Assembly: GCA_022818135.1 (NCBI GenBank)
Contig: JAFMSR010000019.1
Coordinates: 35,712,375-35,776,374, forward strand
Source of the DNA: Saxidomus purpurata
Lineage: Eukaryota; Mollusca; Bivalvia; Venerida; Veneridae
Length of the DNA: 64,000 nucleotides
Reading direction: 5' to 3'
Part shown: in pieces, positions 14,511 to 63,464 of the stretch
Numbering within the stretch: the stretch's first letter is position 1
How the letters are laid out: each line of letters starts with the position of its first letter
The notes under the pieces: model-generated
Told to the model about the DNA's origin: nothing
What the model saw: the letters and a program-made list of their open reading frames with translations, nothing else
Database searches by the model: none
Position numbers and translations under genes: made by a program

Positions 14511-15735
14511 TTAGCTCACCTGAGCTGGCTCAGGGTGAGCTATTAGGATCGATGAATGTCAGTTGTCCGTCCCCACTTAGTTCGTTAACACTCTATTGGT
14601 CACATTTTTGCCTCAATTGTCATGAAACTTGGTCAGGATGTTTGTCCCAGTAATTACTCAGACGAGTTCAAATATGGGTCATCTCGGATGAAAAACTGGG
14701 TCACATGACCTAAAAATAGAAAAATCTTGTTAAGGCTCTAGAGGCTACTGTTTCTGTCCAAATATACTGGCAATTTGTCAAAAAGGTTGTTTGGTTAATT
14801 TCTAGCTCAAGTTTTAATATGGGTCACCTGGGGTCAAAAACTAGGTCACACAGCCCAAATATGGAAAAACCTTGTTAACACTCTAAAGGTAACATTTTCA
14901 GCCCAAATATCATGGAAATATGTCAGAAAGGTTGTTAAGATGATTTCTAGCTCAAGTTCGAATATGGGTCATCTGGGGTCAAAAACTAGGTCACACAGCG
15001 TGAATATGGAAAAATATTGTTAACACTCTAGAGGTAACATTTGCAGCCCAGATATCCTTGAAATTTGTTGGAAAGGTTGTTAAGATGATTTCTAGCTCAA
15101 GTTCGAATATGGGTCACCTGGGGTCAAAAACTAGGTCACACAGCCCAAATGTGGAAAAACCTTGTTAACACTCTAGAGGTGACATTTTCAGCCCAAATAT
15201 CCTGGAAATTTGTCAGAAAGGTTGTTTTGATGATTTCTAGCCCAAGTTTCAATATGGGTCATCTGGGGTCAAAAACTAGGTCACACAGCTCAAATATGGA
15301 AAAGCCTTGTTAATATTCTAGAGGTAACATTTTTAGCCCAAATATCCTTGAAATTTGTCAGTAAGGTTGTTTTGATGATTTCTAGCCCAAGTTTCAATAT
15401 GGGTCATCTGGGGTCAAAAACTAGGTCACACAGCTCAAATATGGAAAAGCCTTGTTAATATTCTAGAGGTAACATTTTTAGCCCAAATATCCTTGAAATT
15501 TGTCAGATAGGTTGTTAAGATGATTTCTAGCTCAATTTCGAATATGGGTCATCTGGGGTCAAAAACTAGGTCACACAGCCCAAATGTGGAAAAACCTTGT
15601 TAACACAGTAGAGGTAACACTTTTCAGCCCAAAGATCCTGGAAATTTGTCAGAAAGGTTGTTTTGATGATTTCTAGGAACTTTGTTAAAAGCAGTTGTAC
15701 TCTGGTGCGCGATAAAGGGCCATCATGGCCCTCTT
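14511..15735 (+). mobile_element. Pearl/Helitron-like element with a regular 145-bp array
   Basis: The GGTCAAAAACTAGG phrase (or its variant) stands at equivalent positions 14681, 14826, 14971, 15116, 15261, 15406 and 15551, a constant 145-bp step over seven units. The left end has a hairpin, AGCTCACCTGAGC (14513-14525) against GCTCAGGGTGAGC (14528-14540). The right end has the hairpin AGGGCCATCATGGCCCT (15716-15732). Tandem core, hairpin ends and no coding capacity match the non-autonomous pearl-type elements known from bivalves, later linked to Helitrons. The Helitron link is inferred. Confidence 0.8.
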
Positions 15736-18220: not shown

Positions 18221-18299
18221 GTCTGCAGTTTGTACCATGCATACTCTGCATGCCTGAAGCAAAATATGTACAACCATAAAGAACAGGTATTCTGTAATT

Positions 18300-18496
18300 G
18301 CAGGTCTGAAGACTATACCATGCATAGTCTGCACGTCTGCAGACTATACCATGCATACTCTGCATGTCTGCAGACTATACCATGCATACTCTGCAGGTCT
18401 GCAGACTATACCATGCATAGTATGTAGGGCTGCAGACTATACCATGCATACTCTGCATGTCTGCAGACTATACCATGCATAGTCTGCAGGTCTGCA
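18300..18496 (-). repeat. 31-bp palindromic minisatellite, array 2
   Basis: CCATGCA stands at 18318, 18349, 18380, 18411, 18442 and 18473, exact 31-bp steps. A stray unit is at 18235, separated by unrelated sequence. The monomer is the reverse complement of that at 1305-1495. The flanks of the two arrays do not match, so they look like independent arrays of one family rather than ends of one large element. Confidence 0.93.
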
Positions 18497-19291: not shown

Positions 19292-21355
19292 AAACCCAAA
19301 AAAAAAGCCAGACAGTAGTGCGACCATGATCCAAAAAAAATGACATTGCAACCTTTCACGAATCATAAATACGTTACGTATATTGGGGTCAACAAATGAC
19401 CAATAAAAATATCATAAAAAAAAATCCAAACCAACCCCCCCCTTAAAAAAAAAAAAAAAAAAATTTTTTTTTTTTCCCCCCCACAAACTTTTGACACTTA
19501 CCATCACAATGTAGCAAAAATAGCTAAATTCTATGTGTAGCTGAGCAATGCAGACCGTATCTCAGATAATTATCATCAAAATATGATAATTAATTATGAT
19601 GTGCAAGTCATTGTGCGAGACATTGCATCTTTTCACGAATCATGAAATACGTTACCTCTTGAAGACATATTGGCGTCGACAAATGACCAATAAAGATATC
19701 ATCAAAATATATGGAAAGCTTTCCCGTCATTGAGTAGCTGAAAAGTCAACAATCATGTTCACACAAATAGTCCAGACTTACCTTCACGATAAAGCTAAAC
19801 AGTTAAAATATATGAATAGCTGACCATTGCAAGCCTAGATGTATTTTAGATAATTACAATCAAAAACATTTTATAATGTGCGAGACATTGTGCGGGACAT
19901 TGCATCTTTTCACAAATAATGAAATACGTTTCCTCTTGATGGCCTATTGGCGTCGACAAATGACCATGGTAATCTCAGCAAACTATATACTAAACTCAGT
20001 CATCCTTGAGTAGCTAAAAATCAACAATGTGTCATGTTCACACAAATTTTCCAGACTTAACATTAAAATCTAGCAAAAAGTTAAAATCTATGAGTAGCTG
20101 AGCAATGCAAGCCAAAATGTATCTTAGATAATTATCATAAAAAAAATAAATAATGTGCGAGACATTGTGCGGGACATTGCATCTTTCCACGAATCATGAA
20201 ATACGTTTCAACTTGAAGAAATGTTGGCGTCGACAAATGACCATTTGGAATATCAAAAAAATATATGCTAAACTCAATCAGCCTTGAGTAGCTGAAAAGT
20301 CAACAAAGTGTCATGTTCACACAATTTTTCGAGACTTACCATCACAATTTAGAAGAACAGTTAAAATAAATGAGTAGCTGAGCATTGCAATCCGATATGT
20401 ATCTTAGATAATTAAGATTATGATGAGCGAGTCATTGATGGCGAGATGATGCATCTTTTCACGAATCATAAAATATGTTACCTCTTGAAGACATATTTGC
20501 GTCGACAGATGACCAAAAGAAATATCAGCAAAAAAATATGCTAAACTCAGTCATCATTGAGTAGCTGAAAAGTCAACAATGTGTCATGTTCACACAATTG
20601 TTAGAGTCTAACCATCAAAAATATAGCAGCCAAGTTAAAATAATATTATATGAGTTGCTGAGCAATGCAAGCCGATATCTTTCTTAGATAATTAAAATAA
20701 AAAAAATTTAATGATGTGCGAGTCATTGTGCGGGACAATGCATCTTCTCACAAATCATCAAATACGTCTTGCAGACATATTTGCGCCGACAAATGACCAA
20801 TTTAAATATATTTCAATATATGCTAAACTAAGCCATACTTGAGTATCTTAAAATTTAACAATAGTTATGTCAATTTCACACAAATTGTTGAGACTTACCA
20901 TCAAAATATAGCAAAAATGTTAAAATATATGAGCAGATGAGCATTGCAAGCCTAGATGTATCCTAGATAATAATTATCAAAACATAAATATAAAGATGTG
21001 CGAGACATTGTGCGGGACATTGCATCTTTTCACGAATCATGAAATACGTTACCTCTTGAAGACATATTGGCGTCGATAAATGGCCAATAGAAATATTATC
21101 AAAATATGCTTAACTAAACAATCCTTGAGAAGCTGAAAAGTCAACAATGTGTCATGTTCACACAAACATTTTAGACTCACCATCAAAGTATAGCAAAACT
21201 AGCTAATATCTACGAGTAGCTGAGCAATGCAAGTTGTATAATAAATACTTAACGTCAAAAATAATAATGATATTATGATGTGCGAGACATTGTGCGAGAC
21301 ATTGCAGCTTTTCACGAATCATAAAATACGTTTCTGATTGAAGACATGTTTGGGA
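18945..21355 (+). repeat. Satellite array with monomers of about 280 bp
   Basis: The phrase TTGGCGTCGACAAATGACC or a variant stands at 18962, 19383, 19670, 19947, 20224, 20497, 20781, 21067 and 21350. The steps are 421, 287, 277, 277, 273, 284, 286 and 283 bp. Other conserved parts are 'gagtagctgaaaagtcaaca', 'gtgcgagacattgtgcggga' and 'cgaatcatgaaatacgttac'. The long first step is due to homopolymer expansion at 19196-19310. Monomers differ by many substitutions, so the array is not freshly homogenised. No coding potential. Confidence 0.94.
19196..19485. repeat. Homopolymer-rich tract inside the satellite
   Basis: Runs of C, A, C and then more than 50 A lie at about 19196-19290. A block of C, A, T and C runs follows at about 19434-19482. 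They replace normal monomer sequence in two neighbouring units and are not found in the others. Consensus or assembly error is as likely as a biological expansion. Confidence 0.85.
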
Positions 21356-24099: not shown

Positions 24100-24610
24100 C
24101 CTCAATTAATCCTCTTTGATAAAAACGATTAAATTGACAATTATTAAGTAAGGTTTGAGAGATACGCTACTGCTATGTTATGGCCGAACGAAAGCGTTGT
24201 TGAAAGAGAAAGCTTTAGATCCATATGCCTTATTGCCTGTAGATAAATGTTTGAACTATAGTGTACCGAAGAAGGCTTTGGTATGTGGCATTCCCTGTTT
24301 GATATTATTTTTGTTTTTTTGTTAAAGCGTTATGAAATGAATGAAGAGGGATTTGAAAAACAAGTTCAGGATATGCAGACTTGATACAAGTGAAACGTTC
24401 TCAGTATTCTGAACGGCAATCTAGTCATTTGAATAGATGGGTAGAACTGTCAAACACTCCAAAGACTAATCAAGGACTATTTGATTAATGCGTAAAGACC
24501 AGTTCTTGCATGTTTACAGTCCAGAATTACAATTTTTCTTAAAGGAAAGATTTCAATGAACCATAGAAGAAATAGTCAACTTAGCTGACCAGTACACAAA
24601 AGTTTGAATC
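24100..24610 (+). pseudogene. Decayed retrotransposon gag (SCAN-like) relic
   Basis: Pieces in several frames read like the gag region of LTR retrotransposons that carry a SCAN-like domain: RFERYATAM near 24150, LKEKALDPYALLPVDK near 24200, LKRYEMNEEGFEKQ after 24321, LNRWVELSNTPKT near 24430, and KDQFLHVYSPELQFFLKERF with EIVNLADQY up to about 24600. At least three frameshifts and several stops separate them, so it is dead. The frame is also interrupted by a 41-bp insertion at 24281-24321. No LTRs, protease or pol were found nearby. Confidence 0.75.
24281..24321 (+). mobile_element. 41-bp Penelope-like 3'-end insertion
   Basis: Matches the extreme 3' end of the Penelope-like element at 37904-40562 (the GGCATTCCCTGTTTGATATT segment followed by ATTTTTGTTTTT). 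Removing it rejoins the gag relic exactly between ...KKAL and LKRYEM..., so it is an insertion with almost nothing but the 3' terminus. A TTTG microhomology exists at the left junction. Confidence 0.85.
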
Positions 24611-28219: not shown

Positions 28220-29703
28220 AAAAATGATACAGGTACCAATGGTTCGTCCTGTTCTGCTCCCTACATATAAAGACAATTTGGAGTATTATGGCCACCTGAC
28301 ATGCTTAATTCAGCCACGGTATTGTCAGATAATGTAAGATAGAAAAATATGGAATAAAAGTCAAATTATATATTTTGGTAAGTAATACTTCTTTTTCCTA
28401 CTTTTAGAAATATTTCTATGTCTGACAAAAGCATCTACCATTAGAAAACAGATTTCCTCCCTCGTTTGGAATTTGTATTAACAGAGTTAACAAACCTTTC
28501 TCATCTCCATTGCCAGTTGATAGATTTGAGTGATATGGTCACATTCATATACAAAACTTATTCATATACTTTCTGAAATATTCTAATGGAAACCCCATAC
28601 TAAATTCAGCAGTTAGGGGTTGTAGCGATAGCAGAGTCACATTTAATCAGATATATCAAGTTATCAAACGTGAAATTAATTCTTGAGGAAAATAATGTTT
28701 TTACTTGAAGATATGCAAATTTTCTTATTTCATGTATCAAACACTTGCCGAGTCCACCACCCTTTGCATTTAAACGGGTATATTTATTCATGAAACGTCA
28801 TTCTTTACATCCATAGTGAGGTATTGGAGCTATCACAGCGTTATATTTTTTTAGATTCATCACCTATCATGGCCACATCTTAATGATCCGAAAGTTGACC
28901 TTAAAATAAGCTAATTTGTTATGAGAAGTAATTATTTCATTATCGTCTTTGATAACGATTTCTTTGCCTGATGACGGTATCAATTTGACTACAGAATATA
29001 TACACTACTTTGAAAATAGACATGTACAAACATGCACAGAAATTGATGTAATTTTAGTAATATCATAATGGATACTTCATACTTCACACTCAAAGTTTTA
29101 AATTGTAGCGGTTATTGTTTCGGATACATCAAATAACGAAACGTCAAATTTATAGTTACGGAAAGAAATGCCTTTATCTCATGTTTCGATAAAGCTTTAT
29201 TTGCCTGATTATAGTCGCATAAATAACCAGCATTTCTTTGAGGTATCTTAAATTTCGTAATATATGCAACAATGGCTCGCATTGTTTATTCCTTTGATAT
29301 TCAGAAAATTTAAATATTATAGCCATTGACATATTTAACATGTTCAAATATTTTCAGTTGAAACTCTGCACTTCCATATCATACAATGACAACTGTTAAA
29401 AGGTCATATATTCTGAAATAAATTGTGAATTTAAGCGATAATAGAGTCACGTTTGTTATATATAGCAAGTGTTTAAATATGAAATTAATTTATACTGAAA
29501 GCAATGCTTTCACTTCCTGCTGTGATTAAGATGCATGTCGCTGATTATAGTATCCATTTAAAGACAGTATTATCCCAAATAGGAGGTGTACCTAATAAAT
29601 ACAGTTAACTAAGTGCCGTGCTAATCTATCTTTGTATTCAAAAATATAAAGTATTATGATCATCGACATTTGTACAGCATGTTCATATTTTTCTGTAATA
29701 GTT
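28220..29703 (+). repeat. Diverged array of about 280-bp units, block A
   Basis: A unit with 'cttcacatccatagtgaggaattggagc', 'gatacatcaagtaacgaaacgtcaaat' and 'gcctgatgatagtatc' phrases recurs near 28602, 28808, 29085 and 29365. 28220-28780 aligns with 37320-37890. 28860-29400 aligns with 41250-41780. 29415-29703 aligns with 42075-42155 plus 44817-44980. Confidence 0.8.
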
Positions 29704-30911
29704 TTAATGAAACTTGAAACTTGAAACTTTTTATTTAATTAAACGCCTGTTTCTATTTAACAATATTCAACGGCGTTGTACAGTACATATAAATAATAAG
29801 AATAAAATTGTGAATGCATAAGAATATGTGGATCAACATCAAATGAAATAAAAGCTTTTACATACAATTCCAATTAACATATTTTTAAAAAATTGCAGAG
29901 ACCATAAAATGATAAAACTGATTGATATACATGTAGCATGAGATAAGATTATTTACATACATGTAACTTGATTACAAATAGATTAAAAAGAATAAAACAT
30001 TCATTTACATTGCACATTCATCACACTGTCAGTCATCAGTTATACGTTACTCATGTTTATCTCATTTCAGACTTTAAAATAGTAATTCAAACTTTCTGAA
30101 AAAATGTGTTTTAAGATTTCTCTTAAATACATCAATATTCTTAGATTGTTTCAACTCTAATGGCAGCGGATTCCACAATTTTGGACCAATAGTTCCGAAA
30201 CTTCTGTCACTAAATGTTTTTCTTTTATTGAATGGAATAACGTAGCAGTTCTCAGAGGTTTTAGCTGAACGTAGTCGGGTATTTGGTACTTGTTTGGTTA
30301 GGAGTTCAGAAAGGTATTTTGGAGCATGACCGATTGAACAATTGTATACAAAAGTCAAAATTTTATATTCGATTCTAGATTTGATGGACAGCCAGTGAAG
30401 GTCGAACAATGCTTGCCTTGAACTGTCAAATTTCTTTCGTTGCAGAACTAACTTAGCGCACATGTTTTGAATACGTTGCATTTTTTTCAATTCAAAATCG
30501 GATACACCATAAAGAATGACATTGCAATAATCCAAGTGTGACATTACGAGTGCTATAACTAGTATTTCAGCTGCTTCTTTGGTGAGGTATTTTCGGATAC
30601 GTTTTATTCTAAGATAGTTTAACATTGCAGTACGGCACTTTCGTTTGACATGTTCCTTGAAATTTAGTGTTTGGTCTAGAAATGCGCCTAAATATCTAAT
30701 GGACTCCTCGGAGTTGATCTTATCTCCGTTAATACAAATGGATTTTAGGTGACACTTTTCGAGTTGTTGAGCACTTCCAAATGTTATGAATTCTGTTTTC
30801 GATGAGTTCATCTTGAGTTTATTAGCATTCATCCAGTTGTTGATATCAATCGCACCATTTTCTAATTCAGCGATTGCAGAAATTTCACTATTTTCTTCAG
30901 TCGGTTAATGA
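29704..30911 (-). mobile_element. 5'-truncated CR1/L2-like element with 8-bp target duplication
   Basis: TTAATGAA is repeated at 29704-29711 and 30904-30911, enclosing 1192 bp. The paralogous locus near 44990-45005 lacks the insert, confirming the borders. Read on the minus strand, the element ends with three tandem AGTTTCA units (29708-29730), a short 3' tandem repeat as CR1-group elements have. It contains only the last part of the RT gene. Confidence 0.88.
30074..30903 (-). pseudogene. Reverse transcriptase C-terminal part, CR1/L2-like
   Basis: From about 30903 down to the stop at 30074 the frame is open for about 275 codons. It starts at the 5' truncation, passes NNWMNANKLKMN and SKTEFITFG (thumb side, after the catalytic motif), then RYLGAFLD, LDYCNVILYG, QRIQNMCAKLV and LHWLSIKSRIEYK, and ends with FGTIGPKLWNPLPLELK and FKRNLKTHFF. 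These are conserved in the Jockey/CR1/L2 group of non-LTR retrotransposons. The endonuclease and RT catalytic motifs are missing, so the protein is non-functional, although the remaining frame is undamaged and the insertion looks young. Confidence 0.88.
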
Positions 30912-36820: not shown

Positions 36821-37903
36821 AACTATATGTCACATTCGCTTACCAATCATCAACAAAATTAGTCAGAATGTTTATCCAAATGATTTCTAGGCCAAGGTAG
36901 AATTTTGGTCACTAAGGGCTAAAAACTAGGTCACACTGTCAAATCGTAGAAAACCCTTGTCAATACTTAAAAAAACGAATTCATTAAAATATGCTTAGAT
37001 GCTAACTAACTCGATCCAATCAAGGTAAAACACTGTCTATAGACCATATTTATTTACCAATCATCTACCAATGTTTGTGTTAATGAATTCTTGCTCAAGT
37101 AAGAAAGTAGACCAAATTGGATCAAAAACTAGGTCACACGAGCAATTCAAGTCATTTTAGAATCTGTGTCACTTTGGGCAAAGAGTACGTGACACGATCG
37201 AATCAGAGAAATTTTTTGTTATTACAATGTACGCCATATGTATTATTCAATCATCATATTTTGTCACAATGTTATCAATGATTTCTGGGTCGATTTCGAA
37301 TCTAGATTAGTGGGGATAGATACTAATAGTTCGTCCTGCTTTGCTCCCTACGCATTCAGAAAATTTGGAGGGAGTATTATGGCCTCTGACATGCATTATT
37401 CATACCCAAATTGACGAATTGGAGCCATGATAGAGTCATATGATATGAGACAGAAAAATATAAAATAAACGTCAAATTATATGTTTTGGAAAGCAATTCA
37501 TTATCTTCCTACTTTAAGAAATAGTTCGTTTCTAAAAATAGCATCTACAATTAGAAAACTGATTTCAACCTTCATTTGGAATTTTATTATTAGAGTTAAC
37601 AAAATCACTAGCCTTTCTCATCTCTATTGCCATTCGGTAAATTTTTAGTAATATGGCCACATTCAACTACCCCATATATTTTCTGAAATATTCAAGTGGA
37701 AACCCCATACTAGAATCAGCAGTTAGGGGTTGTAGTGATAGCAAAGTTACATTTCTTTAGATATATCAAGTAATCAAACGTGCAAATGATTATTAAGGGA
37801 AATAATGTTTTTACTTTAAGATATCTTAATTTATTTTCTTATTTAAGGTATAACACTCTCGCCGTGCCCATCACCCTTTGCATTTAAACAGATATAATGA
37901 TCA
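36820..37903 (+). repeat. Block B start: 145-165-bp class, then 280-bp class
   Basis: 36820-37310 repeats the 'ctaggtcacac' class. 37320-37890 aligns with 28220-28780 (shared 'gttcgtcctg', 'ccccatact..cagcagttaggggttgta' and 'cctttgcatttaaac'). The Penelope-like element begins where the alignment breaks. Confidence 0.75.
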
Positions 37904-39946
37904 TTGACCAGTATATTTCGTGATAGACGTGTCATTGATTCTGTGCCTAAGTATTTCCGAAACTCCGAAGTTCCTATTATCTGTTATAAATATAAAACAC
38001 CTGTTAGAAATGTTATATTCAATTACAATAAAATTGTTTCCGACCTAGATGTTCAAACAAATACCCCTTCTTACTGCGAATGTAAAAACTCGAAATTTTG
38101 CTATTCAGATGCCGGTCATGTCATCACTGGTAATTTTGATATTATTAAAGACAAGCGTATTCGTAATTTATTCTTTAAAGGACCAAAATACAGAATTCCT
38201 TCTACTATTGATTTTCATGCTTGTCGTGGTCATATTGCGGAATCCATCGAAACGTTTTGTGTTAAATGGTGTCGTCGTGAGAATGCTGATCTAAATGCAT
38301 TAACGTCTTGGAAACGAAGTATTTTTAATATTGTCGATTCTCGTATAAAATTTTACCAAACAAATGAACACCTACTTCCATCAAAACCCAAGTTTACTTT
38401 AAGACATCTGCAAAAGGAAATCCAAGAATTTCATTCTAAGTATGTCTTAGTTCCAGCAGACAAGGCGGCCAACAATATTATCATCATTTGACGCCTACAT
38501 TATATTAATGTTTTACAAAACGAACTAAATAGCACTAAAGCTTATATATTGAGTCCTTCCGTTGAACAAAATGTGGTCACTGATCACATCAGTGAAGTTT
38601 CTAATTTGAAAGTTCGTATAGATGATCAACATATTAAACTTCCTACTATGTACTGGATTCCTAAATTACATAAACAACCATATAAAGCTCGTTTCATCGC
38701 TAATTCAAGATCTTGTACCACTACAAATATTTCAAAACTATTAACATCTTGCCTAACTGCTATAAAAGCCCACGTGAAAAGATATTGTGATAATGTATAC
38801 GAACACTCTGGTAAACATTTATTTTGGTCGATCAAAAATTCTGGCGAAATCCTGCATAAGTTTATAGTTAATAATTACAAAGTAACTTCAGTCAGTACAT
38901 ACGATTTTTCTACTCTGTATACCACTTTACCACATAATTTGATAAATGACAAGCTAACTGCCCTAATTCAAAAGACTTTTGCCAGGGAGAATGTTACATT
39001 TCTCGCCTGCAATTTCGATAAAGCTTTTTTTACTAGCTGTATTGTTAAACATTATACTATGTGGACCTGTGACGAAGTTTGTAAAGCCCTTTCCTTTTTA
39101 CTGAACAACATTTATATAAGGTTTGGGAATGCAGTTTTCAGACAAGTAATTGGTATTCCCATGGGAACAAATTGTGCACCCCTTGTCGCAGATTTGTTTT
39201 TATATTGTTATGAAAGAGACTTTATGTTGAGTCTTTCTCCAGATACGCAGGCAGACATTATCACTGCTTTTAATAATACATCACGCTATCTGGATGATAT
39301 TCTTAATATGGATAACCCGTTTTTTGGTCAATTGGTGGACACTATTTATCCCCGGGAACTCCAGTTAATTAAAACTAACAATTTGGATACTGGTGCTTCA
39401 TTTTTAGATTTACATCTCTCTATTTATAACAACATTATACATACCAAAATTTATGATAAGAGGGATGATTTTAATTCTAGTATTGTAAATTTCCCCCATT
39501 TGGATGGGGATGTAACTCATGCTACATCTTATGGGGTATACATTTCTCAGTTAATTCGGTTTGCCAGAGCGTGTAGTCATGTTGAGGATTTCAATGAACG
39601 TAATCAATATATTACAAATAAACTTCTTCAACAGGGCTACCGTTATTACAAATTGCGTAAATATTTTGCTAAATTTTACTATCGTAATTCTGATTTGGTT
39701 TTGAAATTCAATAGTAATCTAAAGACTCTTCTGCGAGAAGGTATTTCAAAACCCGATTTTTATGGGGATGTGGTTTACAAACTTCGTAAGATTTTGGGTC
39801 ATGGCAATTTTCCAACTGTATTTGCTAAAATTATAAAACGTTTTGTTAAAAGAGGTTACGACCCAACTGTTTTGAGACACACCGCATGTTTGGTGTTCAA
39901 CCCGTTTACAGTTGGACGCTATGCTTCCCTCTTTGATTGTGTCTGA
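37904..39946 (+). CDS. Penelope-like reverse transcriptase, probable selenoprotein
   Basis: One frame of 680 codons plus stop, open except for a TGA at codon 196. No ATG start because the 5' end is cut off; upstream TAA and TGA codons belong to the flank. Visible parts in order: a cysteine motif CEC at residues 58-60 (the CxC linker of N-terminal-endonuclease Penelope-like elements), VLVPADKAANN before the TGA, YWIPKLHK at 250-257, RT motif A with D334 (STYDFSTLY), GIPMGTNCAP at 417-426, catalytic YLDD at 462-465, and SFLDLHL near 500. The RT would copy the element RNA at the target site. As I recall this family, related proteins have cysteine where the TGA lies, and with the SECIS downstream I read the TGA as selenocysteine. 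The alternative is a single nonsense mutation in an otherwise undamaged gene. This copy lacks the endonuclease. Confidence 0.85.
38489..38491 (+). other. In-frame TGA, candidate selenocysteine codon
   Basis: Context is NNIIII-TGA-RLHYIN, within a conserved stretch. The frame is uninterrupted for 195 codons before and 484 after. It is about 1.5 kb upstream of the SECIS-like structure, an acceptable distance in eukaryotes. TGT/TGC to TGA is one change from Cys. Confidence 0.7.
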
Positions 39947-39957
39947 CGGAAGAGGGG

Positions 39958-40021
39958 GAGGACTCTGTGATGGGCAGTTTTTAAATCCCACTGGGACGAA
40001 ACTGTTTTGATTTCTGTCCTC
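39958..40021 (+). promoter_or_regulatory. SECIS element, Form II
   Basis: Helix I: GAGGAC (39958-39963) with GUCCUC (40016-40021). After an internal loop comes the quartet GUGAU (39967-39971) against UGAU (40008-40011). Helix II: GGGCAGUUU (39972-39980) with AAACUGUUU (39999-40007), including three G-U pairs. Then the unpaired AAA (39983-39985), 12 nt after the UGA, which is the canonical spacing. Mini-helix UCCC/GGGA (39986-39989 and 39993-39996) with loop ACU. This order is the Form II eukaryotic SECIS. It starts 11 nt after the RT stop codon. Identical structures are at 62832-62895 and, minus strand, 52583-52646. Confidence 0.85.
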
Positions 40022-40562
40022 TGGCCTGTTTCGTCGGGCCCTTAAGGGTGTTTCTCTTGGTGCTCTGCCTTCTGCAAAGGCATTGAGTACATACGTTTTT
40101 TGGTTCTCTAGGTTTGCCTTTTATATATTTATACACGAGCATGTTTTTGTTTTTTACATACCATGCCTTTTGTTTCCATTGCGTGTGTTAGAGATTCACC
40201 TAGCAGGGATTACTTTTATTTACACTGTCCTGTGACTTTGGAACATGGTGGGGGTAAGAGTGAGGTTGGGTGCGCACCATAAACCGGTTTAAGCTCCCCA
40301 GTGGTGTTTTTGCCACTGACCGTTCCAAGGCGGTGCCCCACTGTGTTCCTTTAATTGTTCGTTTTGTCCTCGTGTGTTTGCTTTGTTTGCTAGTGTGTGT
40401 TGGTAGTGTTTGTGTGTGTGTGTACATGATTGTGTGTGTGTGTGTGTGTGTTGTGTGTGTGTGTGTGTTGGTGGTGTGCACTTCTGGGTGCTGTGGGGCT
40501 CGTTTTGGGGAGGCTGCGTTTTTGGTACGTGGCATTCCCTGTTTGATATTATTTTTGTTTTT

Positions 40563-42155
40563 ACGTACAGCATGCTCATATCTTAACGTTTTTTTTTCTT
40601 TTGAAAACTCATACTTCACATCCATAGTGAGGAAATTGAGCTATCACAGCGTTACATGTCTTTTGTAGGTATATCACGTAAGTGTCATGACCACTGACAT
40701 ATAAACAACAATTTCTAAATTGTCTCTGATATCTAAATGGGAAATCCTTAATGTAGAATTGTAGCTATTGTTTGTACATATTTTCCATGTACATCAAGTG
40801 ACGAAACGTCAAATTATTTGATATGGAAATGTATGCGTTCACTTTCTGTTTTGATAATGATTTTTCTGCCTAATGAAAACATCCAATAGAATTTAACATT
40901 TCTTCTAGGTATGTAATGTTGTTATAACAGGCAAGAACAATTCCTTTGCTCATTGCAATTGTCATTCAATTTTTATGGCCATTTACTTCTATAAAACATG
41001 TTAATAGTTATCTGTTATATTTAAATGGAAGCCCCATACTTCGCCTCTATGCTAAGGATTTGGAGCGATGGTAGTTTCATACTTTTGAGATACATAAAGT
41101 ATCTAAACGTCAAATTCAAGCTAAGTTTTGCCTTTTAGACCACCCGATAGAACGCCCTCAAAATTAAAACCAAACTTTATATCGCATCAAAATAGCCAGT
41201 TTAAAAGTTTTAAAAAATCTGGATAGTATGATCTGTTCAGTTTCAAGACCACATCTTAATGATCCGAAAGTTGACCTTAAACTAAACTAATTTGTTGTGA
41301 GAAGTAATGATTTAATTATCGTCTTTGATAAAGATATCTGTGTTTGGTGACAGTATAATTTGACTACAGAAAACATACACGTTTTGAAAATAGAGATGTA
41401 CAAACCTGCACAGAAATTAATATAATTTTATTTATAATCATAATAAAAACTTCATTATTCACAATCAAAGTTTAAATGTATAGCTGTCATTGAGTCATTG
41501 TTCAGGTATATCAGATGACGAAACGTTACATTGTTAGTTTCTGTAAAGAGATATTTTTATTTTATGTTTTGATAGAGCTTTATTTGCCTGAATATAGTAG
41601 CATAAATAAGCAGACAGCATTTCTTTGAGGTATCTTAAATTTCTCAATGGCTCGCTTTGTTTATTCCTTTTATATTCAGAAAATTTAAATATTATAGCCA
41701 TTGACATATTTAACATGTTCAAATATTCTCAATTAAAACTCTGCACTTCACATCCATAGCATACACTGATAACTATGAAAAGGTAATATTTTATGGCATA
41801 AAAAGATTTAAAAGACGTCAAACTATATGATCTGGTCAGAATAATTCCATTGTCTGCTTCATTGTATTAGAAACTGTTCTGTGCCTGATAAAAGCATCAG
41901 CCTTGGGAAGACATTTTTCTCCATGGTTTGTCAATTTTGTTAATAGAGTTAACAAGTACTCGACTAGCTAATCCCCATTGCGATTCAGTAAGTTCTGGTT
42001 ATTACGGTCAATGACATTCACCCGCCAATTTATATATTTTCTGTAATATTGTAATAGAATCCCTATGAATTAATTCAGAAATTGTGAATTTAAGCGATGA
42101 AAGAGTCACATTTGCTCATATACAACAAGCAATGCTTTCACTTCCTGTTGTGATA
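40563..42155 (+). repeat. Block B, 280-bp class units
   Basis: Units begin near 40605, 40745, 41035, 41455 and 41745 with 'catacttcacatccatagtgagg'-type phrases. 41250-41780 aligns with 28860-29400. 40590-40700 continues the target sequence of the Penelope-like insertion. Confidence 0.75.
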
Positions 42156-42156
42156 C

Positions 42157-44485
42157 AAACAAAATGTTATGGCATTCTTGTCTCTTGTGGAATGAAGCAT
42201 TTTGTACACGAGCCAACACATGTTCGAGGACATATTTTAGATGTCGTTATAACAAGAGACAATAGTAACATACTATCAAGTATCGTTGTTACTGATCCAG
42301 GACTCTGCGATTATCTGGGGAATATGAAACAAGATCACTTTGCAGTAACGTTCATTGCCAATGTATCGAAACCACCACCAATAAGAAAGACTGTGACATA
42401 CAGGAAACTACGATCTATTGATATTGGTAGTTTCAAGCAGGACATAGTTTAAGCTGATTGGATTAATACGCAAAGTTCAAATGTTGTTGAGTTACTTGAA
42501 GCATACATGAATGGACTGACTAAAATAATGGATAAACATGCACCCATTCGTTCAAAGACTATCACACTCCACCCCAAGTCTCCTTGGTTCACTGATGACC
42601 TTCATTCATCTAAACATCTAAAACGAAAATTGAAACGTAAATGGCGGAAAACCAAACTGACTATTGATCATCAAATTTACAGAAATCAGTGTGCAGTGTA
42701 TAACATCATGCTGAATGAAGCTCGTAAAAACCATTACTTGGACAAGATTGAAGCTTCTGGTCGTAATACCAAAAGTTTATTTAAAATTACAAAACATTTA
42801 CTTGGTGGCAGCAATGATGGCCCTGTTCTTCCCTCTGGTTCTACTTCTATAGACACCGCAGAGAACTTTAGTGATTTTTTCACATCCAAAATTGAATACT
42901 TTTGAAATGAAATCAAGTTAAATCAGACTGAGACTACAACTGAAAATATAACTGAGATGCATACTGACTCTAAACTTGTCAACCTGCTACCAGCTACACA
43001 TGAAGAAGTAAGGAAAATTATTGAAAAGTCCCCAAACAAGTCGTGCGAACTTGATCCAGTACCAACATGGATTCTCGCTTTTAAAAGCGCTGTCATTAGA
43101 CCTCTTCTGAAGAAACCTGCTCTTGATCCAAACGTACTGAAGAACTACAGACCAGTCTCAAACCTTCAATTTTTATCAAAGATTTTAGAAAAGATTGTAG
43201 ATGTGCGTATTGAGAACCATCTTACAGAAAACAGTTTGCATGAGCCATACCAATCAGCTTATAGAAGTTTTCATTCCACTGAAACAGCGCTATTAAAGGT
43301 GCAAAATGACATCCTTCAGTCTCTAGACAATAATTGTGTTACTGTCCTTGTATTGCTTGACCTATCAGCAGCATTTGACACCATAGATCACAATACACTG
43401 CTAAGTCGTTTAGAAAATCACTATAAGATTTCTGGTAATGCTCTTGCTTGGATTTCTGCATACCTGAATGACAGATTTCAGACAGTGTGTGTTGAGAGTG
43501 AACTTTCAGAACCTGTACTTATGAAATATAGCGTTCCACAGGGATCTGTCTTAGGCCCAAAGTATTTTACTATGTACACAAAGCCAGTAGGCACTATTTG
43601 TCTAAGTCATGGACTATTACATCACTTTTACGCTGATGATTCATAGCTGTACATATCATTTAAACCTATAGACTGTGTCTTCAAAGTCTGAAGCATTACG
43701 TCGCATTGAATGTTGTCTGACTGAAATTATTGCCTGGATGAATTGCAACATGTTAAAACTAAACGCTGACAAGACGGAAGTAATGTTGTTCTCCTCAAAA
43801 CACAATCTCAAGCATGTTGATAATGTTTCTGTCATGGTTGGAGAATCCTCAATAAGCTCGTCGGACTCTATCAGAAATCTTGGTGCTTCCTTTACTCCAC
43901 ACATGGACATGGAAAAACATGTAAACATTGCCCGCAGATCAGCCTATTTCCAGCTGCGAAACATTGGTCGCATACGTAAATTTCTCACAACTGATGCTAC
44001 GAAGACTTTGGTCAATTCCTTAGTAACCTCGAAATTGGACTATTGTAACTCTCTTCTTGTTTGTATCTCAAAATCTACTTTGAGTAAACTTCAGCGAGTG
44101 CAAAATACTGCTGCACGAATCAACACAAAAACTTCACGCTATGACCATATAACAAAAGTGCTGAAGGAACTCCATTGGTCACCTGTGTGTCAACGGATTA
44201 ACTACAATCATAGTTTATACGTACAAAGCTCTTCATGATCAGTGCCCTCAGTACATTAAAGAGCTGTTGAATGTATACAGGCCAACTAGAGACCTTCGTT
44301 CCAGCAGTGCATTGACATTAGTGGTCCCACGGACCAGAACTGTTACATTTGGTAACCGGAGCTTTAGCCATGCTGCACCGAGCTTATGGAATGCTCTCCC
44401 TAGCTCAGTCCAAAGTGCTCAGTCTTTGAACATTTATAAGATACAGTTGAAAACCCATCTTTTTTCAAACTATTATGCAAACTGA
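42157..44485 (+). pseudogene. Endonuclease-RT polyprotein, CR1/L2-like, broken
   Basis: Endonuclease C-terminus (HEPTHVRGHILDVVITRD, and DHFAV with the catalytic His near 42340), then linker (PWFTDDLHSSKHLKRK). RT follows: [73 protein letters not shown] (motif A), [16 protein letters not shown] (catalytic), NCNMLKLNADKTEVMLF and LWNALPSSV near the end. Stops at 42450, 42903 and 43644, frameshifts near 43650 and 44240, and an apparent in-frame deletion of about 30 codons after PTWIL show that it is dead. Confidence 0.9.
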
Positions 44486-44816: not shown

Positions 44817-46480
44817 TCCATGTTGCTGATTATAGTATCCATTTGAAGATAGTATTGTCCCAAATAAGTTAACTTGATGAAAACAGTTAACTAAGTCTCG
44901 CCGTGCTTATCTCTCTTAGTATGAAAGACATAAGGTATTATGATTATTGACATTTGTCATACAGCACGTTCGTATTTTTCTCTACTATTTTTATTGAATC
45001 CCCATACTTCATATCCGTATTGAAGAATTTGGACTACCATATCGTTATATCACATCAAGTGATAACGCTTCAAATGATATGCCTGAATTTAATTTGCATG
45101 GTATTGTCTGTGTGTTCGTCAGTTTGTTCGCCCGCTTTATGTCTCGACTGAAATTTGTATGTGCATAGACTTATGATAAATAAACTACGAAGTAATTGTC
45201 CAAAACACAATGATTTATCATGTAGGGTTAAATACGCCTTTGCAAAAAAATGTAACTACATGCAATTGTTGCCAATATCACAAGGGTGTGTCATGAATCG
45301 CATCCAGGGAGCTACCTTTAATGCCAATGTCACATTTAGGGCTGACAATATGTAATTATGGGTTATGTTCTATTCTATGTGTTAGGGATGTAACTTCTTC
45401 ATACATATAATTGATGAAAAGTTTACACTAAAGCACCTTCATTTCTTCACTAATTCTAAACATATTTAAAGTGAATGTGTATGACCATACGATCTTGGAT
45501 AAGTTCAATTATGGGCTTGATCGGAATAGCTCTTTGAAGTGTTGGCCCTTGATTTAACAAATATTGCAATATCTAACTATGTTTACACTCAAGCGCCTTA
45601 ATTTCTTCACTTATCTTAATAAGTGTTGATGAAACTTGGCAGGGGTGTTCTTGCATGAAAACAAAAATAATATCAAACAGGGAATGCCACGTACCAAAAA
45701 CGCAGCCTCCCCAAAACGAACCCCACATCACCCAGAAGTGCACACCACCAACACACACACACGCGCGCACACGCACACACAAACGACACACACACACACA
45801 ATCATGTACACACACATATATACACTACCAACACACACTAGCATACAAAAGTTCTACCAAAATTCCGTTCAATCCAGAACTCTAATAACCATTGCAACGA
45901 GTAGGAAAAAATGTTAACAAATATTCTTGTTTGAAGCCACAAAGCCAATAGCTTAGGTATTTAACATCTAGCATTGCCTAGTAGACATCTACTAAGATTG
46001 GTCAAATTATGACTCCCGGGTCCAATTGACCACACCCAGGGATCACTTGATTTTACATTGGCTTATATAGGAAAATACTTTTTAAATCTCTGAAACCGCA
46101 AGGCTTAAGGCTTAAATGTTTGCATGTAACAGCATTTGCCTAGTGAACCTCTACCAAGCTTGTTCAAATAGTGTCCCCGAGGTCAGAGTTGACCACACGC
46201 AGGGTGTCACTGATTTTCATAAAGACTTAAATAGAAATAATTTATAAAGTCTTTTTCTCAGAAACCACAATGCCTAGAGCTAAGATATTTAGTATGTGTC
46301 TAGTAGACCTCTACCAAGTTTGTTCAACTCATGCGTCAGTCATCAAAATTGACCCTGTCTTGGGGCTCACTTGCTATAGGAAAAACTTTAACAATCTTCT
46401 TCTCTGAAATCATATGGCCTAGAGCTTAGATATTTGATATGTAGCATTGTCAAATGGACCTCTACAAAGTCAATGGTAAT
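44817..46480 (+). repeat. Block B continued, paralogue of 29540-32400
   Basis: 44817-44995 aligns with 29540-29703, 45000-45480 with 30912-31380, 45480-45655 with 31380-31700, and 45850-46470 with 31730-32340. The only large difference apart from the LINE is the 194-bp Penelope-like insert. Confidence 0.8.
45656..45849 (-). mobile_element. Penelope-like 3' end, 194 bp
   Basis: Reverse complement of the last part of the 37904-40562 element, including the AC/GT microsatellite. The paralogous empty site reads GTTCTTGGTACGAAGCTCTACC near 31704-31727 (shown in part), so the borders are good to a few bases. Repetitive TH-rich reading frames here are products of the AC repeat. Confidence 0.9.
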
Positions 46481-47640: not shown

Positions 47641-47802
47641 GTCATTAGCCAATGACAACGGTGGTCCTCAGACTTAGCCAGATATGACTATGAAATCATC
47701 TACAGACCAAGATGTAAAAATGCAGATGCTGATGACATATCTCGTTACAAGCATGAAAAAGCTACAGACGTAAAAGGACAGTATATCAGTGGCTAATAAC
47801 CC
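47641..47802 (+). pseudogene. Ty3/gypsy RNase H relic
   Basis: One frame reads QRWSSDLARYDYEIIYRP, then KNADADDISRY. This is the conserved end of the gypsy RNase H domain, where the usual text is an 'RW...L..YDF.I.YRPG..N..ADALSR' pattern. A TGA precedes it and nothing of integrase follows. A short dead fragment, just upstream of the Tx1-type element. Confidence 0.8.
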
Positions 47803-47811
47803 TGCAGAAAA

Positions 47812-48895
47812 GTAATTAATTCACTTGTTGTTGATAATAAACAAATAACAGACCAAAACGAAATTTTAAATCAAGAAGTTTTATTTTATAAGCAACTATA
47901 CAGTTCTGAGAGAATTACTTTTGATACACAATCATATTTAAATTCTGTTGAATTAGACAATGAATTAACAAATGAACTTTCGAACACGTGTGAAGGTCTA
48001 TTATCATATGATGAATGTCTTCAGGCCATTACCGAAATGAAGCTGAATAAGAGTCCCGGACTGGATGGCCTAACTGCAGAATTTTATTTAAGATTTTGGA
48101 ACCTTTTCGGTAACTTAGTAGTAGATTCTCTTAATGAAGGTTGTGATAAAGGCGAACTGTCAAGATCTCAGAAGCAAAGCGTTTTCTCTTTAATTTACAA
48201 AAAAGGCAATCCTGAAAATATTGAAAATTGGAGACCAATCTCACTATTAAACATAGACTACAAACTAGCAGCAAGGGTTTTAGCTAAGCGATTGCAAAAT
48301 GTTCTTCCAAACATAATATCTCCTGATCAACAGGGATACATTAAATATAGATATATTGGCTATAATATTCGTCAAAGTCAAGACATAATTGATTACACAG
48401 ACTTACTAAATGAAGATGGCGCTATCCTATTTTTAGATTTCAAATAGGCTTTGATACAGTTGACTGGGGATTTATGCTAAAAACTTTAATAAAATTTGGC
48501 TTTAAAAAATATGTTGTTAAATGGGTAAAAGTCTTAAACAACAATATATCTTCCTGTGTAACTAATAATGGATGGAAATCTGACTTTTTACAATATCAAC
48601 GGGTATTAGACAATGATGTCCTTTGTCAGCTTTACTTTTTATCATCGTAGTAGAAATTATGGCTTTAAAAATTCGTAAATGTCAGGATATCTTAGGAATT
48701 ACTGTAAATAATAAAACAATTCATCGTTTAAAAATAACCCAGCTCACAGATGACACAACTCTTTTTCTAAAAAAAAAAACAGAAATTCCTGTAGCAGTTC
48801 AACTGATTGATGAATTCGGTAAATATTCCGGTCTAAAATTAAACAAATTGAAAACAGAAGGCTTGTGGATAGGAAAACTGAAGAATGATATCTGA
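47812..48895 (+). pseudogene. L1/Tx1-type reverse transcriptase, N-terminal and catalytic part, frameshifted
   Basis: First frame to 48447: LFYKQLYSSE, MKLNKSPGLDGLTAEFY, VFSLIYKKGNPENIENWRPISLLN, DQQGYIKYR and ILFLDFK (motif A). A stop and a one-base shift follow, with FDTVDWGFMLKTLIKFGF in the next frame. A second shift near 48605 leads to the PLSALLFIIVVEIMA motif and then LTDDTTLF, where the usual active site would be ADD. The changed residue and two frameshifts indicate an inactive RT. Confidence 0.88.
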
Positions 48896-50330
48896 TATAA
48901 AATTTACTTCTACATATGTAAAAGCGCTAGGTGTATTTTTCGGAAATAAGAAACAGGAATGCAATAAATTAAATTGGGAAGATAAAATACTTCAATGCCA
49001 ATCACTTCTCTCAAATTGGAGCAAGAGACAACTGACATTGTATGGGAAAATTCTTGTAATTAAATCTATAGCATTACCAAAATTTGTATACCTGATGCAA
49101 CATTTAGAAACGCCTAAAGAAATTATAAGCCAAATAAACGCACTATTTTTTAAATTTCTTTGGAACGGAAAAACAGATAGAATTAAACGTACAATTACTA
49201 TAGGTCATACAATTGATGGTGGTTTAGACATGATTGATGTAAACATATTTTCTAAAGCAATGAAAATCAAATGGGTCAAAAATTTGTTGACAACTGACAA
49301 AGCAAATTGGAAAGTTATCCCTTCTTTCTTCTTAAATCAATATGGTGACAATTTATTGATTTTCAGAATGAACTTAGATTCTTTGAAGTCTCTTCTGCTT
49401 TCGAAATTTTCACTACCAACATTTTATAAATCTGTATTAAACGTGTGTCTCGAATTTAACAAAGACAAACGTAACATCAGCACACTAGAGTCATTTTATG
49501 CAATAAGAAGACAGCTCATTTGGGGAAATAGTTTCATTAAATATAAAGGAAAGTGCTTAATATTTAAAACGTGGATCGATTCCAAAATTCTTTTTCTTGA
49601 TGACCTACTGTCCGAAGAAGGAGAAATTGACGTTAATAGAATATTGAGTTGTCTAAAAGGCAAGCAAAATTGGATATCTGAAATACACATAATTAAAAAA
49701 GCAATACCAAATTCATGGAAAACCATTTTAAGATCTGAAGAGTCTTATTTAACAAAAGTCAAGACTGACCTAGATTTACTAGTTGGGAATAGAAAACACT
49801 TTAGAGATATCACTAATAAAACGATATACGACGAATTTTTGCAACGCATATTCGAACATCCATACATCCATAAATACTGGGAAACTTTATTTGGGAGTCG
49901 AATTAATAGGGATGCATTTTATTATATACTTAATAAAACTATAAAGGACAATAAGATAAAACAATTCAAGTACAAACTCATTCATCGCATTGTTGCTACA
50001 AATCTTAGTCTTTTTACGTGGAAAATTAGTGAGAACCCATTATGCTTTCATTGCAATTCCATAGAAGATAATGAGCATTTTTTCCTATACTGTGGTTATC
50101 TTTCCGATTTTTGGAAAATCATATACGAAGCTTTTAGAAAATGCGGAATTTCAAAATCATTTAGAAATATGGAAAGTATTGTAGTTGGTTATAAGATTGA
50201 ACAAAAAGATTACCAAGGTATCAATGTATTACTTTGTTTAATATCATACTGCATTTATAAAACCTATTTCTCGAGTGATCGCCGAAAGAAATTCATAAAT
50301 ATGGTAAAACACTATATTACGACATTTTAA
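48885..50330 (+). CDS. L1/Tx1-type element C-terminal region, open for 481 codons
   Basis: Continues the RT protein in a third frame, overlapping the previous one by a few bases. The segment YVKALGVFFGNKKQECN, then NWSKRQLTLYGKILVIKSIALPK and FFKFLWNGK, is typical of the thumb/connection region in L1 and Tx1 relatives. Near residues 386-405 a CxxC...H...C pattern (LCFHCN, NEHFFLYC) marks the C-terminal zinc-knuckle-like motif of this group. The frame is undamaged although the RT before it is broken. It is unlikely to be expressed on its own. Confidence 0.85.
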   Translation: MISDIKFTSTYVKALGVFFGNKKQECNKLNWEDKILQCQSLLSNWSKRQLTLYGKILVIKSIALPKFVYLMQHLETPKEIISQINALFFKFLWNGKTDRIKRTITIGHTIDGGLDMIDVNIFSKAMKIKWVKNLLTTDKANWKVIPSFFLNQYGDNLLIFRMNLDSLKSLLLSKFSLPTFYKSVLNVCLEFNKDKRNISTLESFYAIRRQLIWGNSFIKYKGKCLIFKTWIDSKILFLDDLLSEEGEIDVNRILSCLKGKQNWISEIHIIKKAIPNSWKTILRSEESYLTKVKTDLDLLVGNRKHFRDITNKTIYDEFLQRIFEHPYIHKYWETLFGSRINRDAFYYILNKTIKDNKIKQFKYKLIHRIVATNLSLFTWKISENPLCFHCNSIEDNEHFFLYCGYLSDFWKIIYEAFRKCGISKSFRNMESIVVGYKIEQKDYQGINVLLCLISYCIYKTYFSSDRRKKFINMVKHYITTF

Positions 50331-51490: not shown

Positions 51491-52055
51491 CAACTTCCAC
51501 AATCCCTCCTTTCTACATGATATCTGGTCAAAACTTCAGGAAGCAATTATAGAAATTAGTTTATATAAGTTGCAAGTGCTGATAGTCTTTAGGTTCAGGC
51601 AAAATAGGCCACTAGATTCTTTTCGTCAGATCCAATGTCTCACTCCGCTGCCATTGTGGTAGCACGTAATGTGTGATTTAGTTGTGATGCAAACTTGTGT
51701 GAAAAATCAAGTATAATTCATAACTGTAAACATTATGTTAAAATACATTTAAGACATCCAACATAATTGTTCTTTTTTCTTTTGGTTTTGCATTTAGACA
51801 CAATTCATTTTAATATGTTCCTCCCCGTTAGCCCCGCTTTAGCTCTGGGGTAATGAATAGGAATTATAGTAATTACGTATTTGGTCAGTGACCAAAAGAA
51901 GAGTGGGCATTATAATTAAATCTAAAGAAAAAGTTTGTAAATCTATATTGAGTTTAGATGTCTGTGGTTTTACGCAAAATAATGGTGTACTGCATAAATC
52001 TTAGTATAAAAAGATGTGTTTTGCTGTATTTTCTGGGTTCTATGTCACACAATAT

Positions 52056-52149
52056 AAAAACAAAAATAATATCAAACAGGGAATGCCACGTACCAAAAAC
52101 GCAGCCTCCCCAAAACGAGCCCCACAGCACCCAGAAGTGCACACCACCA

Positions 52150-52182
<33 letters not shown>

Positions 52183-52770
52183 CACACGACACATATACAC
52201 TACCAACACACACTAGCACACAAAGCAAACACACGAGGACAAAACGAACAATCAAAGGAACACAGTGGGGCACCGCCTTGGAACGGTCAGTGGCAAAAAC
52301 ACCACTGGGGAGCTTAAACCGGTTTATGGTGCGCACCCAACCTCACTCTTACCCCCACCATGTTCCAAAGTCACAGGACAGTGTAAATAAAAGTAATCCC
52401 TGCTAGGTGAATCTCTAACACACGCAATGGAAACAAAAGGCATGGTATGTAAAACACAAAAATACTCATGTATAAATATATAAAAAGCAAACCTTGAGAA
52501 CCAAAAAACGTATGTACTCAATGCCTTTGCAGAAGGCAGAGCACCAAGAGAAACACCCTTAAGGGCCCGACGAAACAGGCCAGAGGACAGAAATCAAAAC
52601 AGTTTCGTCCCAGTGGGATTTAAAAACTGCCCATCACAGAGTCCTCCCCCTCTTCCGTCAGACACAATCAAAGAGGGAAGCATAGCGTCCAACTGTAAAC
52701 GGGTTGAACACCAAACATGCGGTGTGTCTCAAAATAGTTGGGTCGTAACCTCTTTTAACAAAACGTTTTA
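52056..52770 (-). mobile_element. Penelope-like 3' end, 715 bp
   Basis: Reverse complement of about 39833-40562 of the longer copy, so it includes the last 35 or so RT codons, the stop, the SECIS (52583-52646), and the AC microsatellite in a shorter form. It breaks at AAAACGTTTTA near 52770. Confidence 0.93.
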
Positions 52771-62619: not shown

Positions 62620-63321
62620 TCAAAACCCGATTTTTATGGGGATGTGGTTTACAAACTTCGTAAGATTTTGGGTCATGGCAATTTTCCAACTGTATTTGCT
62701 AAAATTATAAAACGTTTTGTTAAAAGAGGTTACGACCCAACTGTTTTGAGACACACCGCATGTTTGGTGTTCAACCCGTTTACAGTTGGACGCTATGCTT
62801 CCCTCTTTGATTGTGTCTGACGGAAGAGGGGGAGGACTCTGTGATGGGCAGTTTTTAAATCCCACTGGGACGAAACTGTTTTGATTTCTGTCCTCTGGCC
62901 TGTTTCGTCGGGCCCTTAAGGGTGTTTCTCTTGGTGCTCTGCCTTCTGCAAAGGCATTGAATACATACGTTTTTTGGTTCTCAAGGTTTGCTTTTTATAT
63001 ATTTATACACGAGCATTTTTGTGTTTTACATACCATGCCTTTTGTTTCCATTGCGTGTGTTAGAGATTCACCTAGCAGGGATTACTTTTATTTACACTGT
63101 CCTGTGACTTTGGAACATGGTGGGGGTAAGAGTGAGGTTGGGTGCGCACCATAAACCGGTTTAAGCTCCCCAGTGGTGTTTTTGCCACTGACCGTTCCAA
63201 GGCGGTGCCCCACTGTGTTCCTTTAATTGTTCGTTTTGTCCTCGTGTGTTTGCTTTGTATGCTAGTGTGTGTTGGTAGTGTATATGTGTGTGTGTACATG
63301 ATTGTGTGTGTGTGTCGTGTG

Positions 63322-63374
<53 letters not shown>

Positions 63375-63464
63375 TGTGCACTTCTGGGTGCTGTGGGGTT
63401 CGTTTTGGGGAGGCTGCGTTTTTGGTACGTGGCATTCCCTGTTTGATATTATTTTTGTTTTTTT
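62620..63464 (+). mobile_element. Penelope-like 3' end, 845 bp
   Basis: Starts at TCAAAACCCGATTTTTATGG, equal to 39746 onward in the long copy. It keeps the last 66 RT codons, the stop, the SECIS (62832-62895) and a longer TG microsatellite (about 63320-63372). Identity to the other copies is high. The short frame at 62957-63154, also present in the 52-kb copy, lies in the 3' UTR. Confidence 0.93.

What the first reader, a model, noticed from the sequence alone, without database searches (positions are those of the whole stretch)
37904..40021. Penelope-like element that appears to encode a selenoprotein
Seen: a 680-codon RT frame with one TGA (38489-38491) at a conserved position and a complete Form II SECIS just after the stop codon. 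Known: Naiad-type Penelope-like elements (N-terminal GIY-YIG, CxC linker) have been described, and some from clams were reported to be selenoproteins. Inferred: this copy belongs to that group and its TGA is read as selenocysteine. A mobile element that depends on the host selenium machinery is unusual.
Basis: partly seen in the sequence, partly recalled or inferred. Interest (0 to 1): 0.9.

Follow-up and report, generated by a model that had tools for sequence, protein, structure and literature searches.

The report
Jumping gene that encodes a selenoprotein
A jumping gene in an animal-like genome appears to need the host's selenium machinery to read through an internal stop signal and make its copying enzyme; elements of this kind were reported before, and here the stop is seen to be kept in many relatives.

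Summary
Window 37904-39946 is a 680-codon frame with one internal stop, TGA at 38489-38491; a SECIS scoring above Rfam's gathering cut-off lies 12 nt after its TGA terminator. The predicted fold is closest to telomerase. A CxC linker is present and some relatives carry an N-terminal GIY-YIG domain, as in Naiad-type Penelope-like elements. Copy A is 5'-truncated; four shorter 3'-anchored copies lie in the window, two with an identical SECIS.

The stop is unlikely to be decay. Of 120 listed relatives of the N-terminal half, 70 end exactly one residue before it; of 120 listed relatives of the whole frame, 39 begin at residues 198-204. Where a residue could be scored at the site it is Cys 68, Trp 22, Phe 1 of 91; Trp is best read as TGA translated with code 4 (inferred). 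Two distant relatives have TGC and TGT there and no SECIS match.

Selenocysteine Naiads are already known (Craig et al. 2021; content recalled, paper not held), so this is a new member. Incorporation is untested, the host unknown, and its genome could not be searched.

The parts
37904..40562 (+). Copy A of the element, 5'-truncated; left junction near 37903/37904, end of element body 40562, then about 38 bp of unexplained filler before the right flank
   Evidence: Shared 3' end of five copies; flanks match the related uninterrupted repeat near 28790
37904..39946 (+). 680-codon frame of a telomerase-like (Penelope-like) reverse transcriptase, open except for one TGA, terminated by TGA 39944-39946
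   Evidence: relatives; fold
38075..38083 (+). CxC linker motif (TGC GAA TGT, residues 58-60)
   Evidence: the first Cys site shows Trp in 25 of 143 scored relatives
38489..38491 (+). In-frame TGA, residue 196, proposed selenocysteine codon
   Evidence: 127 of 343 pooled relatives end at residue 195; 39 of 120 begin at 198-204; residue at the site Cys 68, Trp 22, Phe 1 of 91
39287..39298 (+). YLDD motif (residues 462-465), downstream of the TGA; its role as RT catalytic motif is from general knowledge
39959..40020 (+). SECIS element (RF00031), Form II layout
   Evidence: 38.7 bits, gathering 35; fold
40021..40562 (+). Rest of the 3' UTR, with a GT microsatellite at 40393-40468
   Evidence: Shared by copies B and C
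62620..63462 (+). Copy B, truncated; SECIS at 62833-62894 identical to copy A
52055..52770 (-). Copy C, truncated; SECIS at 52645-52584 identical to copy A
45658..45849 (-). Copy D, last ~190 bp of the 3' UTR only
24277..24318 (+). Copy E, last 42 bp of the element only

Best explanation
Copy A is a recent, 5'-truncated insertion of a Naiad-type (N-terminal GIY-YIG) Penelope-like retrotransposon whose single ORF is a selenoprotein gene. Steps: (1) the element carries a Form II SECIS in its 3' UTR [shown in sequence]; (2) the host's SECIS-binding protein, EFSec and Sec-tRNA decode the UGA at codon 196 as selenocysteine, at the place of a Cys in other lineages, near the entrance to the RT core [position and Cys/stop alternation shown; decoding inferred]; (3) only the readthrough product contains the catalytic RT, so new insertions depend on the host's selenium machinery [follows from the frame if step 2 holds]; (4) reverse transcription proceeds from the 3' end, leaving 3'-anchored truncated copies such as A-E [anatomy shown; priming mechanism inferred].
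Against: No proof of selenocysteine insertion. DNA of the stop-bearing relatives was not available, so TGA is inferred in them, not read. Relatives are not independent samples, so the Fisher values overstate. 9 of 200 shuffles fold as well as the SECIS stretch. Fold matches have low TM-scores (0.15-0.30) and large rmsd. The GIY-YIG domain is absent from this truncated copy. The own-genome search did not complete (14 tries).
Confidence: 0.9

Rival explanations
1. The TGA is a chance nonsense mutation (Cys TGT/TGC to TGA) in a dead copy, and the SECIS is a leftover from an ancestor.
For: Copy A is truncated and cannot move by itself; Cys is the alternative at the site and is one base from TGA.
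Against: A break at exactly this codon recurs across relatives about 44-86% identical (127 of 343 pooled) and groups on the tree, while the RT beyond it stays conserved.
Confidence: 0.04
2. The UGA is read by ordinary stop-codon readthrough with a standard amino acid; the SECIS match is unrelated.
For: Sequence alone cannot show the inserted residue.
Against: A gathering-level SECIS lies directly after the frame; the alternative residue is Cys, the usual partner of Sec (general knowledge); two Cys-bearing distant relatives show no SECIS match. The tail SDSMMxPT found in relatives (32 of 111 that reach the end fit a looser pattern) could be a frame running into a SECIS core: 14 of 20 specified bases fit this window, suggestive only.
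Confidence: 0.04
3. The host or an associated organism uses a variant code in which TGA is a sense codon.
For: Trp at the site in 22 of 91 scored relatives.
Against: The same frame ends at a TGA, beyond which the relatives do not align with it; closely similar entries are called with a stop at the site; Trp is 25 of 143 and 22 of 91 at sites 58 and 196 but 2 of 1485 at eleven other Cys columns.
Confidence: 0.02

Closest known systems
Naiad Penelope-like elements, selenoprotein forms of spiders and clams (Craig, Yushenova, Rodriguez, Arkhipova 2021, Mol Biol Evol 38:5005; title seen in a reference list; content recalled, paper not held)
   Same: Telomerase-like RT, CxC linker, GIY-YIG N-terminus in relatives, in-frame UGA at a Cys position, SECIS in the 3' UTR
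   Different: The recalled report speaks of multiple selenocysteines; this copy shows one in the part present. Species and subfamily could not be matched to theirs
Cysteine-type relatives (L001, L002, P0015, P0014)
   Same: Related RT; CxC linker in L001, L002 and P0015
   Different: TGC/TGT in L001/L002 and Cys in the proteins at the site; no SECIS match in L001 and L002
Canonical Penelope/Poseidon elements
   Same: Telomerase-related RT (general knowledge)
   Different: Their GIY-YIG domain is C-terminal (PMC11167929, passage seen); here the frame ends soon after the RT
Cellular selenoprotein genes
   Same: UGA with a 3'-UTR SECIS
   Different: Carried by a mobile, repeated element

Membership tests
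Naiad-type Penelope-like element | RT related to telomerase / Penelope | tested here: met
Naiad-type Penelope-like element | N-terminal GIY-YIG endonuclease | tested here: inconclusive
   Missing from this truncated copy. Of the relatives scanned: P0194 and L001 above Pfam's cut-off, P0131 at it, P0128 and L002 below it, P0015 none
Naiad-type Penelope-like element | CxC motif between endonuclease and RT | tested here: met
   TGC GAA TGT at 38075-38083; second Cys in 146 of 154 scored relatives
Naiad-type Penelope-like element | No hammerhead ribozyme (recalled) | tested here: inconclusive
   Rfam gathering scan of the whole window lists only three SECIS_1 matches, but the 5' part of the element is missing here
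Naiad-type Penelope-like element | Insertion-in-fingers domain; bias to microsatellites (recalled) | not tested
   A GT repeat lies inside the UTR, which is not a target-site test
Eukaryotic selenoprotein gene | In-frame UGA at a position that is Cys in relatives | tested here: met
Eukaryotic selenoprotein gene | SECIS in the 3' UTR | tested here: met
   RF00031, 38.7 bits, gathering 35
Eukaryotic selenoprotein gene | Selenocysteine is inserted | not testable with these tools
   Needs reporter or mass spectrometry
Eukaryotic selenoprotein gene | Host has Sec-tRNA, EFSec and a SECIS-binding protein | not tested
   Own-genome search not answered

The most novel reading that the evidence does not exclude
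The UGA is a programmed switch and not only a chemical choice. It sits near where the telomerase-like N-terminal region ends and the RT core shared with LINE-1 and R2 begins (LINE-1 and R2 matches begin at model residues 183-201, TERT matches at 23-67). Termination would give an endonuclease plus RNA-binding-like protein, recoding a smaller amount of full enzyme, much as Gag and Gag-Pol are set by readthrough, and the ratio, hence transposition, would follow the host's selenium supply. Conservation of the stop across many lineages fits this. Against it: group II RT matches begin at 226 and several viral polymerase matches at 36-70, so the border is not sharp, and some lineages have Cys and so no switch.
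Probability: 0.25. Interest if true: 0.8.

Novelty: new member of a known kind. Interest (0 to 1): 0.48.

Why it matters
A mobile element that can make its RT only if the host decodes UGA as selenocysteine ties genome invasion to a trace-element pathway. The conserved site gives a defined codon and SECIS on which this dependence, and whether it sets a two-product ratio, can be tested.

Tried and rejected
Own-genome copies: the genome search (where own) did not complete. DNA of close relatives: the search for related loci with the single protein found none in genome contigs or viral contigs; with an alignment, none in viral contigs and three in genome contigs, of which L003 covers only 32 residues and does not reach the site. 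Plasmid and phage tblastn gave no match; two motif scans of viral contigs gave none. Pfam gives this frame no RT hit, so the RT assignment rests on relatives and fold. The PDB sequence-profile search gave only weak unrelated rows. No tRNA gene in the window. Literature: eight searches; those for Penelope-like with selenoprotein or selenocysteine listed nothing, Penelope with selenoproteins listed three papers unrelated by title and not opened, the others were seen as listings only, except passages of PMC11167929. The library holds open-licence papers only, so this does not bear on novelty. Rejected: decay, plain readthrough and variant code (see rivals). The host was not identified; bivalve is a guess from relatives on contigs filed under Thiodiazotropha and Thioglobus.

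Dropped rows: one search scored a residue only where at least 4 (site tallies) or 5 (column tallies) of the 16 neighbours were identical, leaving 91 of 343 at site 196 and 157 or 143 at site 58. In one search, of 120 proteins 70 end at 195, 31 show Cys, 5 Trp, 1 Phe (P0302), and 13 end elsewhere or have a gap at the site. In the tree 116 of the 120 listed relatives, the window and L001 were used, with states for 65 of 118; Trp was counted as stop; the tool warned of long branches (L001, and P0015/P0085 meeting P0019/P0026), and the Cys label of P0082 is a doubtful alignment. The 24 proteins that begin at residue 249 were not counted as stops. Each protein search listed 120, of 1676, 203 and 272 hits.

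Full report
Observation. Frame 2 of the window from 37904 to 39946 encodes 680 residues with one in-frame TGA (38489-38491, residue 196) and ends at TGA 39944-39946. Mononucleotide shuffles of this frame contain 47 stops on average, never fewer than 27 in 2000. A SECIS_1 match (RF00031) occupies 39959-40020 on the same strand, full length, 38.7 bits against a gathering score of 35, 12 nt beyond the terminator and 1467 nt beyond the internal TGA. In the whole window only three Rfam gathering matches are listed, all SECIS_1 and all of equal score. The core reads GUGA where the Rfam consensus has AUGA. The predicted structure has the mini-stem above the AAA loop that marks Form II; its energy is 1.94 sd below shuffles, and 9 of 200 shuffles fold as well.

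Anatomy. Five pieces in the window share one 3' end: A 37904-40562, B 62620-63462, C 52770-52055 (minus), D 45849-45658 (minus), E 24277-24318. They start at different places on the 5' side, the pattern left by reverse transcription from the 3' end (inference). A differs from B at 4 of 633 and from C at 7 of 545 aligned bases outside the microsatellite, and the SECIS is identical in all three; they are recent insertions. A related repeat near 28790 is uninterrupted where A is inserted, which sets the left junction near 37903/37904 and the right flank near 40601; about 38 bp between element end and right flank are unexplained.

Is the TGA kept? Three protein searches listed 120 relatives each, of 1676, 203 and 272 found. 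With a query ending one codon short of the site, 68 of 120 hits end exactly there while their starts differ widely; hits were not cropped and were projected on the full 840-residue P0015, so the end of the query does not by itself create the peak, although the length filter of the search leaves out full-length proteins. With the window's own N-terminal half, 70 of 120 end at residue 195; the rest show Cys (31), Trp (5), Phe (1), or end elsewhere or are gapped at the site (13). The two lists share 17 proteins. Pooled over the three searches, 127 of 343 end at 195. From the other side, 39 of 120 hits to the whole frame start at residues 198-204 (22 at 198, 2 at 201, 2 at 203, 13 at 204), although the upstream protein is conserved.

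Which residue when one is present? At site 196: Cys 68, Trp 22, Phe 1 of 91 scored. At eleven control Cys columns Trp occurs 2 times in 1485. Closely similar entries have Trp in some and a stop in others: P0004 reads VVVWRLYYINTLKREL while P0077, in the same tight clade of the tree, starts at MYYINTLKREL; P0019 and P0026 read NNVIIIWK while P0190-P0192 end at NNVIII. The simple reading is a TGA translated as Trp by gene callers using code 4; this is inference, because their DNA is not held. At site 58, the first Cys of CxC, Trp occurs in 25 of 143, with Arg 5, Ser 4, Leu 3, and some N-terminal pieces end just before it (P0199, P0202, P0209), so a second recoded UGA there is likely in some relatives. 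Copy A has TGC at that site.

Against decay. On a tree of 118 proteins with states known for 65 (Trp counted with stop), Cys versus stop needs 3 changes against a shuffled mean of 16. The tree was made by the quick method, the tool warned of long branches, and one Cys label (P0082) is doubtful. Cys is the state of P0015, P0085 and L001; the stop spans most of the remaining labelled tree, with Cys again in the P0014/P0006 group. L001 and L002, about 32% identical in the best segment, read TGC and TGT at the site, and neither has a SECIS match at E up to 1 in the DNA held. L002 is broken into two frames.

Relatives' tails. Many relatives end in SDSMMxPT (32 of 111 that reach the end fit a looser form). 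Back-translated, this is ATGATGG followed after eight bases by TAA, the spacing of GTGATGG and TAA in the window's SECIS; 14 of 20 specified bases fit, in a different frame. It suggests that in those families the frame runs into the SECIS. This is suggestive only.

Mechanism. Most likely the UGA is decoded as selenocysteine by the host machinery under direction of the 3'-UTR SECIS, giving the only product with the YLDD motif. Shown: codon, SECIS, conservation, Cys alternation. Inferred: decoding, dependence of transposition, the role of the selenol. The terminal TGA is only 12 nt from the SECIS, and no relative aligned resembles the sequence after it, so it is probably a true stop.

Bolder reading. 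In the structural comparison LINE-1 and R2 matches begin at model residues 183-201 and TERT matches at 23-67, so residue 196 lies near the border between a telomerase-like RNA-binding region and the RT core. Group II RT matches begin at 226 and several viral polymerase matches at 36-70, so the border is not sharp. A conserved stop there could set a ratio of short to full product. Probability 0.25.

Limits. Own-genome search unanswered in 14 tries; host unknown; no DNA of the stop-bearing relatives; relatives are not independent.

Noticed in passing
window 40563-40600: About 38 bp between the end of element copy A and the right flank, without counterpart in the uninterrupted repeat; partly similar to the left flank at 37821-37844.
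   Followed up: partly
L001:776-3817 and L002:1301-4360: GIY-YIG plus RT elements of eukaryotic type inside contigs filed as bacterial genome bins (Flavobacteriales, Planctomycetota), probably eukaryotic contamination (inference).
   Followed up: partly
window 42069-44238, 47800-50330, 30074-30904: Other reverse-transcriptase frames, including RVT_1 (42906-43643) and zf-RVT (48882-50327) matches above cut-off and a weak RVT_1 match at 30077-30904: probably non-LTR retrotransposon remnants.
   Followed up: partly
window 14665-15676, 19482-21347, 1304-1508, 18299-18496: Tandem arrays with periods 145, 282 and 31; a similar 31-base unit occurs at both 1304 and 18299 in opposite orientation.
   Followed up: no
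relatives P0004, P0187, P0199, P0202, P0209: Signs of a second recoded UGA at the first Cys of the CxC linker in other subfamilies.
   Followed up: partly
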